This document shows, in pieces, positions 6,304-54,974 of a DNA stretch of 64,000 nucleotides. The translations under genes were made by a program, and so were the position numbers. Position 1 is the stretch's first letter. The number at the start of each line of letters is the position of its first letter. Source of the stretch: Sphingomonadaceae bacterium OTU29LAMAA1 (lineage in GTDB: Bacteria > Pseudomonadota > Alphaproteobacteria > Sphingomonadales > Sphingomonadaceae); NCBI GenBank assembly GCA_024072375.1, contig CP099617.1, positions 1,344,001-1,408,000 on the forward strand, read 5' to 3'. Below the pieces are notes generated by a model. That model did not search any database. It was not told the origin of the DNA and saw nothing but the letters and a program-made list of their open reading frames with translations.

Positions 6304-8109
6304 TCAGTACACCCGCTTCTTCGGCTTGATGTACTCCACATCATCCGTGAGCGTGTAGTCGTGGACCGGGCGATAATCGATGGCGGTCGCACCACCCACG
6401 CCGCCCCAGCCGGTGAAGGTCGTGATCGTGTGCTTCATCCAGCCGGCGTCGTCGCGATCCGGATGATCCTCGTTCACATGCGCGCCGCGCGATTCCTTGC
6501 GGTTCGCCGCCGAATCGATCGTCACCACCGCCTGCGCGACCAGATTGTCGAGCTCCAGCGTCTCGATCAGATCGGTGTTCCAGATCAGGCTGCGGTCGTT
6601 GACCTGCACGTCCGCCATCTTCTTGTAGATGCCCGACATCAGCGACTGGCCCTCGGTCAGCAGCGCGTTGTCGCGGAACACGGCGCAATGCTTCTGCATC
6701 GTCCGCTGCATCTCGCCACGGATTTCCGCGGTGGGGATGCTGCCTGACGCGTTGCGGAACTTGTCGAGGCGGGTCAGCGATAGCTCTTCCGACCCCTTGG
6801 GCAGCGGGTTATGCGTACCGTTGGGCTTGCAGATGTCGGCGATACGCTTGCCGGTCGCGCGACCGAACACCACGAGATCGATCAGCGAGTTCGAGCCGAG
6901 ACGGTTTGCACCGTGGACGGAAACGCAGGCCGCCTCACCCACCGCGAACAGGCCCGGCACCACCGTGTCGGGGTTGCCATTGACGAGGTTGACGACCTCG
7001 CCGTGGAAGTTCGTCGGGATGCCGCCCATGTTGTAATGCACCGTCGGCGTGACCGGCAGCGGCTGGCGGGTCAGGTCAACACCCGCGAAGATCTTGCCGG
7101 TCTCGGTGATGCCCGGCAGCCGCTCGTGCAGCACCTTGGGATCGATATGGTCGAGGTGCAGGAAGATGTGGTCGCCGTTCTTGCCGACGCCGCGGCCTTC
7201 GCGCATTTCCATCGCCATCGACCGCGATACGACGTCGCGCGACGCGAGATCCTTCGCCGACGGGGCATAGCGCTCCATGAAGCGCTCGCCCTCGGAATTG
7301 GTCAGGTAACCGCCCTCGCCGCGCGCGCCCTCGGTGATGAGGACGCCTGCGCCGTAGATGCCGGTCGGGTGGAACTGGACGAACTCCATGTCCTGCAACG
7401 GCAGGCCGGCTCGCAGCACCATGCCGCCGCCGTCACCGGTGCAGGTGTGCGCCGAGGTCGCCGAGAAGTAGCAACGACCATAGCCGCCCGTCGCCAGCAC
7501 GGTGTTGTGGCTGCGGAAGCGATGGATCGAACCATCCTCCATGCACAACGCCACGACGCCACGGCACTGGCCGTTCTCCATGATGAGATCGAGCGCAAAA
7601 TATTCGACGTAGAAGTCGGCATCGTAGCGCAGCGACTGCTGGTACAATGTGTGCAGCATCGCATGGCCGGTACGGTCGGCGGCGGCACAGGTGCGCTGCG
7701 CGGGGGGACCTTCGCCCATGTTCTGCATCATGCCGCCGAACGGGCGCTGGTAGATGCGGCCCTCGTCCGTGCGGCTAAACGGCATGCCGGCATGCTCCAG
7801 CTCGTACACCGCGGCGGGTGCCTCGCGGACCATATATTCGATCGCGTCCTGGTCGCCGAGCCAGTCGGACCCCTTGACGGTGTCGAACATGTGCCAGGTC
7901 CAGTGATCCGGACCCATGTTGCCGAGCGATGCGGCGATGCCGCCCTGCGCCGCGACGGTGTGGCTGCGGGTCGGGAACACCTTGGTGATGCAGGCGGTCT
8001 TCAGCCCGTTCTGCGCGCATTCCATCACCGCGCGAAGGCCGGAGCCACCCGCGCCGACGACGACGGCATCATACGTGTGGTCGATGATCTTGTAAGCAGG
8101 GGCGCTCAT
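6304..8109 (-). CDS. sdhA: Succinate dehydrogenase flavoprotein subunit
   Basis: The catalytic subunit of complex II, oxidising succinate to fumarate with a covalently bound FAD. It has 601 residues, the usual length. The FAD-binding [12 protein letters not shown] is near the N-terminus. The flavinylation His is in SHTVAAQGG (about His50). Active-site motifs include HPTGIYGAG and [18 protein letters not shown]. Its start overlaps the sdhD stop by 4 bases. The operon order is sdhC-sdhD-sdhA; the iron-sulfur subunit gene does not follow. Confidence 0.98.
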
Positions 8110-8489
8110 GCGGCGGCTCCGAAGGCGACCTTGAGGATCGCGAAGATGGCAATCGCGGCGGTCGCGACGGTGAAGAAGTTGAGCAGCAGCATCGCGGCGA
8201 CCCGCTTCTCGTCATGCTGGTAATCCTCGATCACCACCTGCAAACCCAGCCGGAAGTGATAGAAGACCGACACGATCAGCAGGATCATCGGAATCGCCGC
8301 CCAGCTGTTGCGCAACCAGCTGTGGACCGCTTCGTAATCGTACCCGGGCATGCGCGCGACGGCGAAGACGAACCAGAGCGTCAGGAACAGGTTCGACCCC
8401 GCGGTGACGCGCTGGCGCCACCAGTGATGCGCGCCTTCCTTGGCGCTACCGAGGCCGCGGACGCGGCCGATGCTGGTGCCTGAACCCAT
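8106..8489 (-). CDS. sdhD: Succinate dehydrogenase membrane anchor subunit
   Basis: A 127-residue membrane subunit of complex II with three hydrophobic helices (about residues 32-46, 65-82 and 98-122). The heme/quinone-site motif [19 protein letters not shown] contains the conserved His and Asp-Tyr. The start shares one base with the sdhC stop (TAATG), and the end overlaps sdhA by 4 bases. This tight coupling supports stoichiometric synthesis. Confidence 0.95.
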
Positions 8490-8917
8490 TACTTCATCCC
8501 CAGATAAAGCCAGAACGCCGCGGTCAGGACGAACCCGCCAGCGATCACGATCAGGCTGAACATCTTGTTGCGCTTCAGTTCGAATGCCGCGCCCGCATCC
8601 ATGACGAGGTGGCGGACGCCGTTCAGCATGTGCGTGAAGAACGCATAGGTCATGCCGACGCCGACCAGCCAGCCGAGTACGTTCAGGTTGCCGGCATCGG
8701 TGGTGAACACGTCGCGGAACGTCGCATAGGCCTCCGCCCCCGCTGCGATCGCGGCCAGCCACCACACGAGCAGCACCGTGCCGACCGTCGCCATGCCGGA
8801 CCCGGTCGCACGATGGAGGATGGACACCAGCATATGCGGCCCCCAGCTGTAGTGGAGCTTCAGGAAGCCCGAAAAGAGATGCGGGCTGCGCGGACGCGCC
8901 GGATTACGGGATGCCAT
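8489..8917 (-). CDS. sdhC: Succinate dehydrogenase cytochrome b556 subunit
   Basis: A 142-residue membrane subunit. The family motif SILHRATGSG is at about residues 32-41, and the heme-ligating region is HMLNGVRHLVMDAG. There are three transmembrane helices. The ATG at 8917 (MASRNPARPRSPHLFSGFLK) is chosen because the family normally begins RPRSPHL about 8 residues in. An upstream ATG at 8977 is less likely. It is the first gene of the operon. Confidence 0.95.
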   Translation of the reverse strand: MASRNPARPRSPHLFSGFLKLHYSWGPHMLVSILHRATGSGMATVGTVLLVWWLAAIAAGAEAYATFRDVFTTDAGNLNVLGWLVGVGMTYAFFTHMLNGVRHLVMDAGAAFELKRNKMFSLIVIAGGFVLTAAFWLYLGMK

Positions 8918-9061
8918 GAACGGTCCTCGGGCAAAATCGAATGCATTGCCTATTAGGCCTGCCTTGCTGCGATGCAACCCATCGGCGCCACTCTAACTCC
9001 CCATTAACCACCCAGCGTTAGAACCGGCGACACAAACGTACGTCAATCGCCGGAGCCGCCC

Positions 9062-10423
9062 TTGTCCGACATCGCAATGCCACCGCCGGCCAGTATCGCC
9101 GCCGCGATCGACCTGAAGAGCCGCATCAAGGCTTTCGACGGAGGCGAGAACACGCTCGTCGAGCGCGCCGCCGAGCTGTGGACGATCATCGAACCCGATG
9201 CGGGCGACATCGTCGAGGCCTATTGGGCGCATTGGCGCCACGCCAATCCCGGTGCCGCCGAATGGACCCCGCTGGAGAACGAACGTCGCGTCACCGCCGG
9301 CGTCACGTATCTGCGCAACCGCTTCTGCCAGCTCGACGGCCGGCTGTGGGTCGAGTCGCTGGAGCGGGCGGTCGCCTCGGCATATCGTGCCGGTGTCTCG
9401 ACGATGGAGGTACTGGCGATGTCCTGCGCCAGCGACCGCGCCGCGCTGAAGGCATTGCGCGCCCGCCTGCCCATCGATGATGCGCGCCAGCACGCGCTGA
9501 CCGACGCGCTGATGCGGCTGTTCGGAATGGAAACCGAGCTGACCGTCGAATTGTTCGCCGGCTTTGCCGATTATAACGCCCGCATCGCCCGCGAACGCCT
9601 TGCATCCGAGTTTCGCGAGGGCATCGCGACCGCGGTCGAAACCGCGACCGATGAGGGTCATGCCTTGCGCGAGCAGGCCGAACGCAGCTCCGGCTCGGCG
9701 CGCGGCATGCTGGGCAAGGCGAGCGAAGTCGCTGCCGCCGCCGAACAATCCGCCGTCGCGATGCGCGAGGCCGCACAGACCGCCGCAGGCCTGATCCGCG
9801 CCATCGAGGACGCCCGTACCGAAGTGGAAGCCGCCGCCGAGATCGCCAGTCGCGCGAGCGTGCAGGCGACCAACGCGGTCGGCATGTCCGAGGCGTTGAG
9901 CGACCATGCCAAGTCGATCGAATCGATCCTGGGCCTGATCCGCGACATCGCCGGCCAGACCAATCTGCTGGCACTCAATGCGACGATCGAGGCGGCGCGC
10001 GCCGGCGACGCCGGTCGCGGCTTCGCCGTGGTGGCACAGGAGGTGAAGAGCCTCGCCAACCAGACCGCCCGTGCCACCGACGATATCGCCGCCAAGATCG
10101 CCTCGATCCAGTCGGCGACGCGATCGACCGTCGAGACCAACGCCAGCATCAAGACGACGGTGACCGAGGTACAGGAAAGCGCCGACCGCATCCGCTATGC
10201 GATGGAGGCGCAGGCGCAGACCGTCACCGCGATCACCGCAGCGGTCGACGAGACCGCCCTCGCCGCCGATTCGATGTCGAGCACGATCGCCGCGATCCGC
10301 GAGGATACCGAAACGGTCGCGGCCGAGATCGACAGCGTCGGCCGCGGTTTCGACCGGCTCGACGGACGATTGAACACCCTCAAGAACAGCGCCGGCGAAT
10401 TCGTCGCAAAGGTCGCTGCGTGA
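9062..10423 (+). CDS. Soluble methyl-accepting chemotaxis protein, globin-like sensor
   Basis: A 453-residue cytosolic chemoreceptor with no transmembrane helix or HAMP domain. Residues of about 20-170 form an all-helical sensor resembling globin-coupled receptors (protoglobin type). The remaining part is an MCP signalling coiled coil whose hairpin tip is [20 protein letters not shown]. Aligned by eye with HemAT-type sensors, the position of the proximal heme His (nine before Trp96) is Arg87, so heme binding is doubtful. The TTG at 9062 is preferred because GGAG lies about 7 bases before it; the next ATG is 9077. It is tandem with a close paralogue. Confidence 0.85.
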
Positions 10424-10442
10424 GGACGGAGAGGATGACTGA

Positions 10443-11807
10443 ATGGCACGCGCGTTGCTGTCGGAAACCGTAACGCCGGCGCGGCGCACGATCGTCGAGC
10501 ACCTGGGCGAGTATGACTGGGACGGATTGATCGCGGAAGCCTGCCGCGACATCTGCACGCTGCTGGACGGAGAGGATTATCGCCAGATCGCCGATCGATT
10601 CTGGCGGCATTACCTCTCTTTGCCCGCGACCCGGCATATTCGCCATGTCTTCACGGCCGAGCGGCTGGAACGTCGCGTGCGCGAAAGCGCCCGTTATGCC
10701 TTCCTCAAATACAGTGCGCCGTTCGACGAGGCATGGGTGCGGGTCGCGATCCAGCATGCCGAACAGTCGATGCAATCCGGCGTGCCCCTGCCGACGCTGC
10801 AGGCGGCGCTGGCGCAATCGCACAGCTTCACCTTGGCGACGCTGGAGCAGCGTTGCGTCGGCGATACCCCGCGACTGATCCGGCTTTGCGACGCCGTACA
10901 GCGTACCGCGCTCGTCGAATCGGACCTGATGACCGGCCATCTCGCCACGTTGCAGGCCGAAGCGGCCCGACAGGAACGCCAGACGCGGTCCGCGGCGTTC
11001 CGCGAGAGCATCGCCACATCGATCGAAGGCGCGGCGACGCTCGGCGCGCGCATCCGCGTGCAGGCCAACGCCGCCTCCGCCTCGACCCGCGAGGTGCTGG
11101 GCAAGGCGAGCGAGGTCGCTGCCGCCGCCGAACAGTCCGCCGTCGCGATGCGCGAGGCGGCACAGACCGCCGCCGGGCTGATCCGTGCGATCGAGGACGC
11201 CCGGACCGAAGTCGATTCGGCCGCCGCCATCGCGCTGCGCGCCAGCGGCCATGCAGGCGACGCGGTGCGCGCGAGCGAAATGCTCAGCGATCACGCCCAG
11301 TCGATCGAATCGATCCTGGGCCTGATCCGGGCGATCGCCGGCCAGACCAACCTGCTGGCGCTGAACGCGACGATCGAGGCGGCACGCGCAGGCGACGCCG
11401 GCCGCGGGTTCGCCGTCGTCGCGCAGGAGGTGAAGAGCCTCGCCAACCAGACCGCCCGCGCCACCGACGACATCGCCGCCAAGATCGCCGCGATCCAGCA
11501 TGCGACCCGCACGACCGTGGCGACCAACGCGAGTATCGAGGCGACCGTCGCCGAGGTACAGGAGAGTGCCGACCGCATCCGATTTGCGATGGAGGCGCAG
11601 GCCCACACCGTCACCGCGATTACTGCCGCCGTCGACCAGACCGCGCTGGCGGCGGACTCGATGTCGCATACGATCGATGCGATCCGGGCTGATACGCAGG
11701 CGGTGGCAGGCGAGATCGACAGTCTGGGCGCCGGCTTTGGCGAGGTGGGCGACCGGCTGGGCCAGTTGCGGGCATCGGCGGACAGCTTCTCGGCGAGCGT
11801 GGGCTAA
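10443..11807 (+). CDS. Soluble methyl-accepting chemotaxis protein, paralogue
   Basis: A 454-residue paralogue starting 20 bases after the previous gene, with a strong RBS (GGAGAGG, 8 bases before ATG). The N-terminal sensor (about 1-170) has diverged strongly. The signalling half is almost identical to its neighbour, including [20 protein letters not shown] and the tip [20 protein letters not shown]. The position expected for a proximal heme His (nine before Trp98) is Lys89. No transmembrane segment is present. No che genes are nearby, so it would feed a signalling array encoded elsewhere. Confidence 0.85.
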
Positions 11808-11930
11808 CCTCGATCCGCATCCGCAACGGGGAGTGGCGCGGCGAAGTTTTGAAAAAGGAGCTTCCTCCCCTCGGCAAGCCGGGGAGGATTCAGGTTGGCG
11901 CCGGCGGTGCCCCGGCTTAATGCCGCCGCC

Positions 11931-12626
11931 ATGTCCATGCTCCTTACCGGATCGAGCCGCGGCATCGGCGCGGCGATCTTCGAAACGCTCACCGGCGCCG
12001 GCGCTGCCGTCATCGGCCACGGCACCCGTAGCGGCATCCCCGCCGATTTCGCCGACCCCGCCGCACCGCTGGCACTGTGGAAGGCCGCGCTCGATCAGGC
12101 AGGCGGAACGATCGATGTGCTGATCAACAACGCCGGCGTGTTCGAGGCCAATCCCCTCGACCGCGAGCATGACGACTGGGTCGCGGACTGGGAGCGGACG
12201 ATGCGGATCAACCTGACCGCTTCCGCCGAACTCTGCCGCCTTGCCGTCCGCCACTGGCAGGAGCGCGGCACAGGCGGGCGTATCGTCAACATCGCCAGCC
12301 GCGCCGCCTATCGTGGCGACAGCCCCGCGCATTGGCATTACGCCGCCGCCAAGGCCGGCATGGTCGCGATGACCAAGACGATCGCACGCGGCTATGCGAA
12401 GGATGGAATCCTCGCCTTCGCGATCTGCCCCGGCTTCACGATGACCGGCATGGCCGACGATTACCTCGCCAGCCGCGGCGGCGACAAGTTGCTCGCCGAC
12501 ATCCCGCTCGGCAAGGTCGCCGATCCGCAGGAAGTGGCCGCGGTCGCCCGGTTCTGTGCGCTCGACGCGCCGGCATCGATGACGGGTGCGGTGCTCGACG
12601 TGAACGGCGCCAGCTATGTCCGCTGA
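11931..12626 (+). CDS. Short-chain dehydrogenase/reductase
   Basis: A 231-residue Rossmann-fold SDR. The cofactor loop TGSSRGIGAAI is at about residues 5-15, NNAGV follows around 65, and the catalytic Ser is in NIASRAAYRG. The Tyr-Lys pair is seen as YAAAKAG. The C-terminus GAVLDVNGASYVR resembles FabG-type enzymes that act on 3-oxoacyl or steroid-like substrates. The ATG at 11931 places the Gly-rich loop at the usual distance. It overlaps prmA by 11 bases, so the two are coupled. The substrate is unknown. Confidence 0.88.
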   Translation: MSMLLTGSSRGIGAAIFETLTGAGAAVIGHGTRSGIPADFADPAAPLALWKAALDQAGGTIDVLINNAGVFEANPLDREHDDWVADWERTMRINLTASAELCRLAVRHWQERGTGGRIVNIASRAAYRGDSPAHWHYAAAKAGMVAMTKTIARGYAKDGILAFAICPGFTMTGMADDYLASRGGDKLLADIPLGKVADPQEVAAVARFCALDAPASMTGAVLDVNGASYVR

Positions 12627-13560
12627 ATCGTGGAAGGTCACCCTGCCCTGCACCCGTGCCGAGGCGGAGGCGATCGACAGCGCGTCAGACCTTGCGATCG
12701 AGGCCGTGCTGATGACGACGGAGGAGGTCGAGGACGACGTCGAACGGTGGCGGCTCGATGCCTATATGGAGCATGAGCCCGATGCGACGATGCTCGCGCA
12801 CCTCCATGCGCTGGTGCCAAGCGCCTCTGCCAACGATCCCGTCGTCGTGCGGCTTGCCGACGAGGATTGGGTCACGCTGAGCCAGTCCGGCCTCGAACCT
12901 ATTCGGGAGGGACGCTTCGTGGTCCACACCAGTGCGCATCCGGCGGATGTGCCGGCAAGCGGCCGCGCTTTCCTGATCGAGGCGGGACAGGCGTTCGGCA
13001 CCGGTCACCACGGCACGACCAGCGGCTGCCTGGCGATGCTCGACGCGCTGGAGGTGGCTGGCGCGCGTTTCGCCAAGGTGATCGACGTCGGCACCGGCAC
13101 CGGCCTGCTCGCCTTCGCCGCGGTCGATCTCTGGCCGCAGGCGCAGGTGGTCGCCACCGATATCGATCCGGTTGCGGTGGACGTGACGCGCGAGAATGCC
13201 GCCTTGAACGCCATCGAGGACGTCGACCTGTTCGTCGCGGACGGCGCACGTCATCCGGACATCGATGCGCAGGCCCCTTTCGACCTCGTCATCGCCAACA
13301 TCCTCGCTGGCCCGCTGGTGTCGATGGCGCCCGAACTCGCAGCGATCGCCGATGCGGGTGCGACGATCTTGCTCGCCGGCCTGCTGGAAACGCAGCGCGA
13401 GACGGTGGTCGCCGCCTATGCGGCCTGCGGCTGCACGCTGGACGCGATCGATCGCCGCGGCGACTGGACCGTCCTGCGCCTCACCGCCGGGGCGGAGCGA
13501 TACGTCCCGACCGCGCCGTTCGATCCCAACGGCCGCGACGGCTGGGCGCTGGATCTGTAA
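12616..13560 (+). CDS. prmA: Ribosomal protein L11 methyltransferase
   Basis: PrmA trimethylates ribosomal protein L11 using S-adenosylmethionine. The 314-residue protein has an N-terminal L11-recognition domain. The conserved AGQAFGTGHHGTT is at about residues 124-136. The SAM-binding motif VIDVGTGTGLLAFAA follows, and the motif IV region is DLVIANILAGPL. Length and order match the family. It starts inside the end of the SDR gene. A 11-bp hairpin follows the stop. Confidence 0.93.
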   Translation: MSAESWKVTLPCTRAEAEAIDSASDLAIEAVLMTTEEVEDDVERWRLDAYMEHEPDATMLAHLHALVPSASANDPVVVRLADEDWVTLSQSGLEPIREGRFVVHTSAHPADVPASGRAFLIEAGQAFGTGHHGTTSGCLAMLDALEVAGARFAKVIDVGTGTGLLAFAAVDLWPQAQVVATDIDPVAVDVTRENAALNAIEDVDLFVADGARHPDIDAQAPFDLVIANILAGPLVSMAPELAAIADAGATILLAGLLETQRETVVAAYAACGCTLDAIDRRGDWTVLRLTAGAERYVPTAPFDPNGRDGWALDL

Positions 13561-53408: not shown

Positions 53409-54974
53409 CTATGCCCGGATCGTACCGCTCCGCAATTCCCGGACGACGCTGTCCGTAGACACGCGCAGGCTACGCGCATGCTCCGACAGCCGCGCCGCCG
53501 CCTCGCGCACTTCGGCCGACAGCGTGCCGGCGGTGTTCGCCGCCGCGGCGACGTCGCCGATCCGCTCCTCGATCGTCTTCGCGCCCGCCGCCGCCTCTCG
53601 CACGCTGCGTTCGATCCGGGTCGCGGCATCGCGCTGGCCCTGCATCGCCGTCCGGATGTCCGCCGTCGCGATCGCCACGCGCGAGACCGCGGCGGATGCC
53701 TTGCCGAGATCGTTCGCGGCGGTGTCGACGCCATGTTCGACGCTGGCGATCAGCGCCGCGATCTTGTCCGTCGTGCGGCTGGTCGCGGACGCCAGTTGCT
53801 TGACCTCCCCCGCCACCACCGAAAAGCCGACGCCCGCGGCCCCGGCCCGCGCGGCCTCGATCGTCGCGTTCAACGCGAGCAGGTTCGTCTGGGCGGCGAT
53901 GCCGTTGATTTCGCCGACGAAGCCGTTGATCGCACCGGCACGGACGGCGAGATCCTGCACCGCCCGATCGCCATTGGCGGCATTGTCCTGCGCGGTGACG
54001 GTCAAGGCGCTTTGCTCTTCCGCACTGCGCGCGACGCTGGCGATGGTGTTGGCGAGGTCGACCACATCCCGCTGCACGCCGCGTACCGCTTCCGCCGCCT
54101 TGGTCGCCCCTGTCGCCGCATCGTTGGCGCGACGGCCGGTATCGGCGGCGATCGCGTTGAGCGACGTCGCCGACCCCTCCAGGCGGCCGGAGGCTTCCTC
54201 CAGCGCAACGGCGACCTCGACGACCGTCGCTTCCATGCCGGCAGCAAGCGTCAGCAGCTCGGCATGACGGCGCGCCTTGATCCGGGCTTCCGCTGCATTG
54301 CGTTCGCGCCGTTCGTGCATCTCTCTCGCTTCGGCGCTGCGTGCCGCATCAAGTGCGGCAACCGCCCGCTCGCGCGCTTGCGCCGCCACGGCGCGTTCGG
54401 TATCCGCCGTCGCCGCCAGCCGCTCGCTTTCGACCCTTGCCACGTCTTGCTTCGTCAGCAGACGCAGCAGTTGCTCCGCCGCATAGCTCAGCGCGATCGT
54501 CTGCAAACCGACCGCCGCGGCATGGAATAGGACGCGGCCGGTATCGGTCTGGCCACCGGCGAACACCAACGCCGGCATCACCAGATCCAGCGTCAGATGA
54601 TGCACGGCGATCAGCACCGCCGCGAGCACGATCGGCCGCCAGTCGCACAGCAGCACGAGCATCGACAGGCCCACGAAGAAGAACATATGGCCGTCCATCT
54701 GCCACGGCCCGCCCGCCAGCAATATCACCAGCAGCGCCGGAAGCAGCGCCAGCACGACGGCAATGGACAGCAATGCCGGCAGATCGGCGCGACCCTGCAG
54801 CGCCATCCGGGTAGGCAGCAGCAGGAACAGTCCGCCGATCACCGGACAGACGAGCGCGATGCCATGCCCGATCCCGATCGCCATGACGGCGAGCGCCGTG
54901 ACACAGAGCCACCCGAACAGCACGAGCTTGCGCACACCGCCCGCACGCAAGGCATAGACCGAATCGACCGTCAT
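53409..54974 (-). CDS. Membrane methyl-accepting chemotaxis protein, His-rich multi-helix sensor
   Basis: A 521-residue chemoreceptor with about six transmembrane helices in residues 17-170 and no periplasmic sensor domain. The membrane part has the pattern [10 protein letters not shown] (His96), CDWRPI (Asp111), AVHHLTLD (His125, His126) and LFHAAAVG (His151), which could bind heme or metal. A coiled coil leads to the MCP domain with tip [20 protein letters not shown]. Its ATG overlaps the upstream small gene's stop (ATGA). Its ligand is unknown. Confidence 0.9.

What the first reader, a model, noticed from the sequence alone, without database searches (positions are those of the whole stretch)
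9062..11807. Tandem soluble chemoreceptors with globin-like sensors lacking the heme His
Two adjacent cytosolic MCPs have nearly identical signalling halves and divergent helical sensors. By-eye alignment to HemAT-type globin-coupled receptors places Arg87 and Lys89 where the proximal His should be. They may sense something other than heme-bound gas, or form heterodimers. The near-identity of the signalling halves suggests gene conversion.
Basis: partly seen in the sequence, partly recalled or inferred. Interest (0 to 1): 0.5.

Follow-up and report, generated by a model that had tools for sequence, protein, structure and literature searches.

The report
Twin chemotaxis receptors with heme-less globins
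Two neighbouring genes make soluble bacterial navigation receptors whose sensing parts look like oxygen-binding globins but lack the residue that holds the heme, so they probably sense something other than a heme-bound gas; in related bacteria their signalling parts have repeatedly been copied from one gene to the other.

Summary
Two tandem soluble MCPs (A 9062-10423, B 10443-11807) have divergent sensors (20% aa identity) and similar signalling cores (85%). Both sensors are predicted with confidence as globin-coupled-sensor (GCS) globins (best PDB match AfGcHK: Z 18.4 for B, 15.7 for A; HemAT 16.4 and 14.2). None of 70 related sensors has His at F8; 45 of 45 curated canonical ones do. The heme set (B10 Tyr, HW, F8 His) is replaced by another conserved set. 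At 31 of 35 inspected loci the sdh genes lie upstream, divergently. Gene conversion of the core is clear in other tandem pairs (core dS 0.03-0.16, sharp edges) but not recent in this genome (dS 0.55). Most likely: heme-independent cytosolic chemoreceptors for a small ligand or cell state. Ligand, heme content and heterodimers are untested. Heme-less sensor globins are known (RsbR; perhaps Atu0514), so this is a new variant of a known kind.

The parts
9062..10423 (+). Gene A: soluble MCP, 453 aa, TTG start
   Evidence: ORF list; MCPsignal 114.8 bits; TTG with upstream CCGGAG also seen in relative L004
9107..9559 (+). Globin-like sensor of A (about residues 16-166)
   Evidence: AF2 pLDDT 92.0, pTM 0.84; VIA Z 15.7 to 5ohe_A, rmsd 2.5, 150 aligned
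9380..9382 (+). Ala107 of A, aligned with the proximal F8 His
   Evidence: joint alignment; numbering
9320..9322 (+).
9707..10342 (+). Signalling core of A (residues 216-427), containing the block homogenised in relatives
10443..11807 (+). Gene B: soluble MCP, 454 aa, 19 bp after A
   Evidence: ORF list; MCPsignal 108.4 bits, Protoglobin 21.7 bits, below the cut-off of 25
10485..10946 (+). Globin-like sensor of B (about residues 15-168)
   Evidence: AF2 pLDDT 90.4, pTM 0.81; VIA Z 18.4 to 5ohe_A, rmsd 2.3, 152 aligned
10767..10769 (+). Ser109 of B, aligned with the proximal F8 His (His105, one turn earlier at F4, is the nearest His)
10707..10709 (+).
11094..11729 (+). Signalling core of B (about residues 218-429)
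6304..8977 (-). sdhA, sdhD, sdhC, divergent from A; conserved neighbours of these receptors
   Evidence: ORFs; tblastn synteny; gene names are recalled from the translations
11895..13560 (+). SDR-family gene and prmA-like gene downstream, also conserved neighbours
   Evidence: gene names are recalled from the translations

Best explanation
A and B are cytosolic chemoreceptors built like HemAT (N-terminal globin-fold sensor, C-terminal MCP hairpin). Their globins belong to a lineage that lost heme ligation long ago: His F8, Tyr B10 and the E-helix His-Trp pair are replaced, and a new set of conserved residues (Trp B10, Tyr, Lys/Arg near the end of helix E, Trp in helix F, Glu) took over. The sensor most likely works heme-independently: a small, probably apolar ligand or a conformational cue in the former heme cavity shifts the dimer's helical bundle, and the hairpin passes this to CheW/CheA. 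Tandem duplication gave two sensors on one type of output. In several lineages gene conversion keeps the output block matched while the sensors diverge. Shown by computation: architecture, predicted fold, loss of the heme residues across the sampled family, homogenised cores in relatives, conserved locus beside sdh. Inferred: absence of heme, the kind of ligand, signalling to CheA.
For: Fold: AF2 plus Foldseek/VIA, GCS globins first for both. Homology: hhalign probability about 98% over 153-160 columns against 45 canonical protoglobins; profile of 53 relatives matches the GCS globin 2w31 at E 3.7e-4 and AfGcHK at 0.0049; 40 of 53 relatives match Pfam Protoglobin at E<=1, best 3.5e-9. Residue loss: F8 His in 0 of 70 non-redundant relatives against 45 of 45 canonical rows; B10 Tyr 45/45 becomes Trp 47/53. 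His-less rows are one side of a branch, SH-aLRT 98, in a quick tree of 100 rows. Sensor dN/dS 0.10-0.37 between the window and four relatives. Machinery present: CheR, CheW-domain and flagellin genes. Homogenised cores. Precedents, passages read: RsbR non-haem globins and a fatty acid in a B. anthracis homologue (PMC4976288); HemAT senses ethanol without heme (PMC7542364); Atu0514, a globin MCP said to lack conserved globin residues, whose deletion weakens chemotaxis (PMC10851874, PMC8466855).
Against: No heme or ligand measurement. AF2 alignments held only 12 rows, and cavity volume could not be measured. B has His105 at F4, one turn before F8, and His is the commonest residue there (16 of 53; Asn 11), so an unusual heme ligand is not excluded. 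A alone has no Pfam globin match (11.6 bits). The sdh neighbourhood may be mere synteny: the SDR gene on the other side is present as often (31 of 35 each).
Confidence: 0.75

Rival explanations
1. The sensors still bind heme through a different axial ligand (for example His105 at F4 of B, or the conserved Tyr of helix E) and sense gases like other GCS.
For: His is the commonest residue at F4 (16 of 53) and Tyr stands at the old His of the HW motif in 42 of 53; a site-swapped GCS globin with Lys-His heme ligation is in print (PMC4476040, title and start of abstract in the listings).
Against: F4 is Ala in A and Asn, Ala, Tyr or Ser in 30 of 53; B10 Tyr and the HW pair are lost as well. The Tyr column is the only candidate kept in most rows.
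Confidence: 0.1
2. The sensors bind nothing; they are dimerisation and array-organising modules, like the role suggested for Atu0514 in Agrobacterium.
For: Deletion of atu0514 weakened taxis to four unrelated chemicals, and its protoglobin is said not to bind them (PMC8466855, passages).
Against: Two divergent sensors are both kept under purifying selection (dN/dS 0.10-0.37) on one type of output, and a new residue set is conserved, which fits separate sensing tasks better.
Confidence: 0.2
3. The sensors carry another tetrapyrrole, such as a bilin, like phycobiliproteins or photoglobins.
For: Foldseek lists phycobiliprotein chains for both models, below the best GCS globins; A has Cys89 followed by Gln-Leu-Asp near the end of helix E.
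Against: CXRD or CXQD occurs in 1 of 81 sensors scanned, not in A or B; Cys89 is absent in several A sensors such as L009 and L010; no B12-binding domain in the Pfam scan of A or B.
Confidence: 0.03
4. The similarity to globins is only a common helical-bundle arrangement.
For: A has no significant Pfam hit on its own; helical models often score middling Z.
Against: GCS globins rank first for both models, Z 15.7-18.4, with 150 or more residues aligned nearly gaplessly; profile-level sequence homology with the same register.
Confidence: 0.02

Closest known systems
HemAT-type globin-coupled chemoreceptors (HemAT-Bs, HemAT-Hs, Atu1027)
   Same: Soluble; globin fold plus MCP output; the core aligns with the same spacing around the tip as His-bearing GCS MCPs of the same class (L099, L107)
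   Different: No proximal His, no B10 Tyr, no HW pair; cannot hold heme in the usual way
Atu0514 / MCP514 of Agrobacterium (che-operon MCP with protoglobin and HAMP)
   Same: Globin-type soluble MCP reported to lack conserved globin residues (passages of PMC10851874 and PMC8466855)
   Different: Has a HAMP domain and lies in the che operon; A and B lie beside sdh, away from the che genes. Sequence relation not tested
RsbR / pXO1-118 type non-heme globin sensors of Bacillus
   Same: Globin fold without heme residues; RsbR N-terminus (2bnl) matches model A at Z 11.3, rmsd 2.9, 128 aligned
   Different: Other output domain in RsbR (STAS); no Rsbr_N match among the families listed in Pfam scans
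Campylobacter Tlp2/Tlp3/Tlp4
   Same: Paralogous chemoreceptors with divergent sensors and identical signalling domains (passages of PMC9769880)
   Different: Periplasmic dCache sensors

Membership tests
Globin-coupled sensor (heme) | N-terminal globin fold of sensor-globin type | tested here: met
   AF2 models, Foldseek and VIA, by prediction only
Globin-coupled sensor (heme) | Proximal F8 His | tested here: not met
   Ala107 / Ser109; 0 of 70 relatives
Globin-coupled sensor (heme) | Distal B10 Tyr | tested here: not met
   Trp55 / Trp54; Trp in 47 of 53
Globin-coupled sensor (heme) | Binds heme | not testable with these tools
   needs protein
MCP chemoreceptor | MCP signalling hairpin with conserved tip | tested here: met
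   PF00015 at 114.8 and 108.4 bits; tip [17 protein letters not shown]
MCP chemoreceptor | Chemotaxis machinery in the genome | tested here: met
   CheR 3, CheW-domain 4, flagellin 2 matches
RsbR-type non-heme globin protein | STAS output domain | tested here: not met
   MCP output instead
RsbR-type non-heme globin protein | Globin fold lacking heme-ligating residues | tested here: met
   (fold by prediction)
Photoglobin | Fusion to a B12-binding domain | tested here: not met
   no such Pfam hit in A or B
Photoglobin | CXQD bilin-type motif | tested here: not met
   absent in A and B; CXRD/CXQD in 1 of 81 sensors
Tandem pair with recent gene conversion | Cores of A and B in one genome closer than orthologous cores at synonymous sites | tested here: not met
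   window pair dS 0.554: above all four A-A values (0.384-0.457), below three of four B-B values (0.543-0.716). Met for L016 and L017; L010, L012, L013 and L023 have low A-B dS (0.031-0.164) but no orthologue dS was computed for them

The most novel reading that the evidence does not exclude
A large clade of heme-free globin chemoreceptors, encoded at a conserved locus divergent from succinate dehydrogenase, in which the old heme cavity was rebuilt around a conserved Trp-Tyr-Lys/Arg-Trp-Glu set to sense a metabolic cue. Recurrent gene conversion keeps the output blocks matched so that tandem sensors can share arrays or form heterodimers.
Probability: 0.3. Interest if true: 0.65.

Novelty: new variant of a known kind. 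Interest (0 to 1): 0.45.

Why it matters
Globin MCPs are usually read as oxygen receptors. Here a widespread set has lost the heme residues (F8 read in 70 non-redundant sensors), and close relatives of A and B stay under purifying selection, so 'globin MCP = aerotaxis' would mislead for these bacteria. The family profile matches 71 of 199 sampled Sphingomonadaceae genomes (F8 was not read in all of these, and at least one match is a canonical sensor). The tandem pairs are also a clean natural case of an output module homogenised while the sensors diverge, and the conserved Lys/Arg and Trp columns give direct targets for mutagenesis.

Tried and rejected
Rejected: Arg87/Lys89 as the proximal position. 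Rejected: recent gene conversion in the window pair. Rejected: photoglobin membership. NCBIfam gave no globin model for A, B or the 53 relatives. Single-sequence phmmer of each sensor against PDB gave one hit each, neither a globin (E 1.7 and 0.045). RsbR N-terminus is not among the 50 listed VIA rows for model B, which says nothing either way.

Rows dropped: one search kept only ORFs with a typed tip motif. One search removed receptors whose 120-residue core equals another's, which hid converted paralogues; one search recounts 81 non-redundant sensors without that rule (70 nearer the family profile: 0 His; 11 nearer the canonical one: 9 His, 1 Phe, 1 cut short; some of these 11 are also among the 45). 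Of 53 canonical rows, 8 were left out: 7 were MCP pieces picked by mistake, whose F8 was not read, and 1 was a partial row (it has the His). Only the 30 best matches of each were fetched as loci. The His-less and canonical sets were gathered by different queries, so the clean split in the tree (quick method, long branches flagged, 41 of 97 inner branches open) is partly expected.

Against the conversion reading: in the protein tree of cores L016 and L017 group by gene rather than by genome, and L013/L023 do not group by genome; grouping by genome for L016, L017 and L023 is in the DNA tree only.

No paper on these sphingomonad receptors or on gene conversion between chemoreceptor genes was seen in the listings of searches; the library holds open-licence papers only, and the photoglobin paper was not held.

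Full report
What is there. Two adjacent genes on the + strand, A (9062-10423, 453 aa) and B (10443-11807, 454 aa), encode proteins with an N-terminal helical sensor and a C-terminal MCP signalling domain. Neither has a transmembrane-strength segment. The five named relatives found are Sphingomonas records. The genome has nine MCP-domain matches, three CheR, four CheW-domain and two flagellin matches. It has no protoglobin above the Pfam cut-off; B (23.2 bits) and A (11.6) are the only weak hits.

Sensor fold. As single proteins, B hits Pfam Protoglobin weakly (21.7 bits, cut-off 25) and A does not. AlphaFold2 models from 12-row alignments are confident (B pLDDT 90.4, pTM 0.81; A 92.0, 0.84). 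In the PDB, GCS globins come first for both: B to AfGcHK Z 18.4, rmsd 2.3, 152-153 aligned, and to HemAT Z 16.4; A to AfGcHK Z 15.7, rmsd 2.5, 150 aligned, and to HemAT Z 14.2 (Foldseek). Independently, an alignment of 53 relatives matches 45 canonical protoglobins over 153-160 columns by hhalign at about 98% probability (the single-pair E-values are not calibrated against a database). The 53-row profile finds GCS-type globins in the PDB by sequence (2w31 E 3.7e-4, anti-anti-sigma factor 7o0i 0.0032, AfGcHK 0.0049). 40 of the 53 match Pfam Protoglobin at E<=1.

The proximal position. In canonical sensors the His lies four residues before the Gly of HxRIGL and is present in 45 of 45 rows kept. 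In the window family the same column holds Ala (34), Ser (9), Ile (6), Met (2), Thr (1) and Gly (1), and never His, in 53 rows. A recount on 81 non-redundant sensors gives 0 His among the 70 nearer the family profile, and 9 His, 1 Phe and 1 cut short among the 11 nearer the canonical profile. The window residues are Ala107 (A) and Ser109 (B). The structural ranges agree: AfGcHK 7-158 aligns nearly gaplessly with B 15-168 and A 16-166, and the AfGcHK proximal His, recalled as residue 99, then falls at or next to these positions.

More than one residue has changed. So the heme-contact set is gone and another set is conserved. Sensor dN/dS between the window and four close relatives is 0.10-0.37, which indicates function. 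In a quick tree of 100 sensors the 55 His-less ones form one side of a branch (SH-aLRT 98), consistent with one old loss; long branches and the way the sets were gathered limit this.

Distribution and locus. With the family profile, 71 of 199 Sphingomonadaceae genomes (38 of 96 genera) match at E<=1e-5; at least one of these matches, in G031, is a canonical sensor also found. In a class-wide sample of 240, 11 genomes match: the window's own, one of its genus, and 9 others. The ten matches in those 9 are weak (26-40 bits), all nearer the canonical profile, nine with His and one with Phe at F8, so no clear family member was seen outside in that sample. In an order-wide sample 54 of 196 match at E<=1e-10, 8 of them in other families of the order (their F8 was not read). 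Of 35 loci inspected, chosen among the matches, 31 have sdhC-sdhD-sdhA in divergent orientation upstream of the receptor(s): 13 of 15 and 18 of 20. In three of these (L157, L158, L168) the gap is 2-3 kb, in L147 0.76 kb. The misses are L003, L148, L172 and L171; L171 is cut by a contig end 0.7 kb upstream. An SDR gene lies downstream in 31 of 35 (14 of 15 and 17 of 20). Two tandem receptors are seen in the window's genus (not in L148) and at some loci of other genera, one at most of the rest. A link to respiration is a hint only, since the downstream gene is equally conserved.

Gene conversion. For 13 tandem pairs, sensors within a genome are 17-24% identical while cores are 77-97%. In the sensor protein tree 11 of 13 A sensors form one clade (support 1.00), apart from L013 A and L023 A. 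In the DNA tree of cores, A and B group by genome in L009 (0.98), L010 (1.00), L012 (1.00), L016 (0.999), L017 (0.97) and L023 (1.00). In the protein tree of cores this holds for L009, L010 and L012 only, while L016/L017 group by gene. Synonymous divergence is the clearest test. In L016 and L017, two related species, A-B cores within each genome differ by dS 0.064 and 0.102, but A-A and B-B cores between them by 0.42 and 0.44, and A-A and B-B sensors by 0.75 and 0.70. Core A-B dS is 0.031 in L010, 0.050 in L012, 0.161 in L013, 0.164 in L023, but 0.471 in L009 and 0.357-0.474 in L003-L007. Sliding windows of 30 codons in L010, L012 and L016 show 96-100% DNA identity over a block of roughly 180 codons, dropping to about 40-60% on both sides at the same places. 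In the window pair A-B core dS is 0.554, inside the orthologue range (A-A 0.384-0.457, B-B 0.543-0.716), and in the DNA tree the cores of W and L003-L007 group by gene (A 0.97, B 0.95). L007 A has a 40% identical sensor on a 98% identical core compared with window A, which looks like a sensor exchange.

How it most likely works. By analogy with HemAT, which senses ethanol through its globin without using the heme (PMC7542364, abstract and passages), and with the non-haem RsbR globins, one of whose B. anthracis homologues was crystallised with a fatty acid (PMC4976288, passages), the former heme cavity probably takes another small ligand, or the domain relays a conformational state. The signal would pass through the long last helix of the sensor (residues 142-191 of B in the model) into the hairpin. 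Signalling to CheA is inferred from the intact tip and the presence of che genes. Atu0514 is the closest described case: a soluble globin MCP said to lack conserved globin residues, whose deletion weakens taxis to several chemicals (PMC10851874, PMC8466855, passages). Whether it belongs to the same family was not tested.

Verdict. Well supported by sequence and prediction as heme-less globin chemoreceptors; new, as far as the searches named under Tried and rejected show, as a clade with its own conserved residues and a repeatedly homogenised output block, but a variant of a known kind. The ligand, heme content and partner choice need experiments.

Noticed in passing
G000:C2:3414906-3415574 (L137), 3327480 (L135), 2855285 (L136), outside the window: Three very short MCP-like proteins (238, 271 and 225 aa open frames): a PAS-like domain by eye (two) or a His-less globin-like sensor (one) joined to little more than the MCP hairpin tip.
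   Followed up: partly
G000:C2:2251377-2252585 (L068/L133), outside the window: A further MCP with a divergent globin-like sensor; Tyr at the F8 column.
   Followed up: partly
window about 53532-53978, minus strand (L134): Another MCP in the window, in a 579 aa open frame with strongly hydrophobic N-terminal segments, probably a multi-pass membrane receptor.
   Followed up: no
L183 (G410:C29:185923-186333): A sensor otherwise close to canonical protoglobins (117 bits to the canonical profile) has Phe at the proximal His position: perhaps an independent loss of the heme ligand.
   Followed up: no
L007:2570-3946: Gene A of this Sphingomonas has a core 98% identical to window A but a sensor only 40% identical: a likely sensor exchange.
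   Followed up: partly
L006:2585-5359 and L012:100-2826: Open frames of 924 and 908 aa run through the tandem region in the reading frame of gene B; probably an effect of high GC.
   Followed up: no
L091 (G006:C3:608088-608560): A canonical protoglobin match is split between two overlapping stretches in different frames, probably a frameshift.
   Followed up: no
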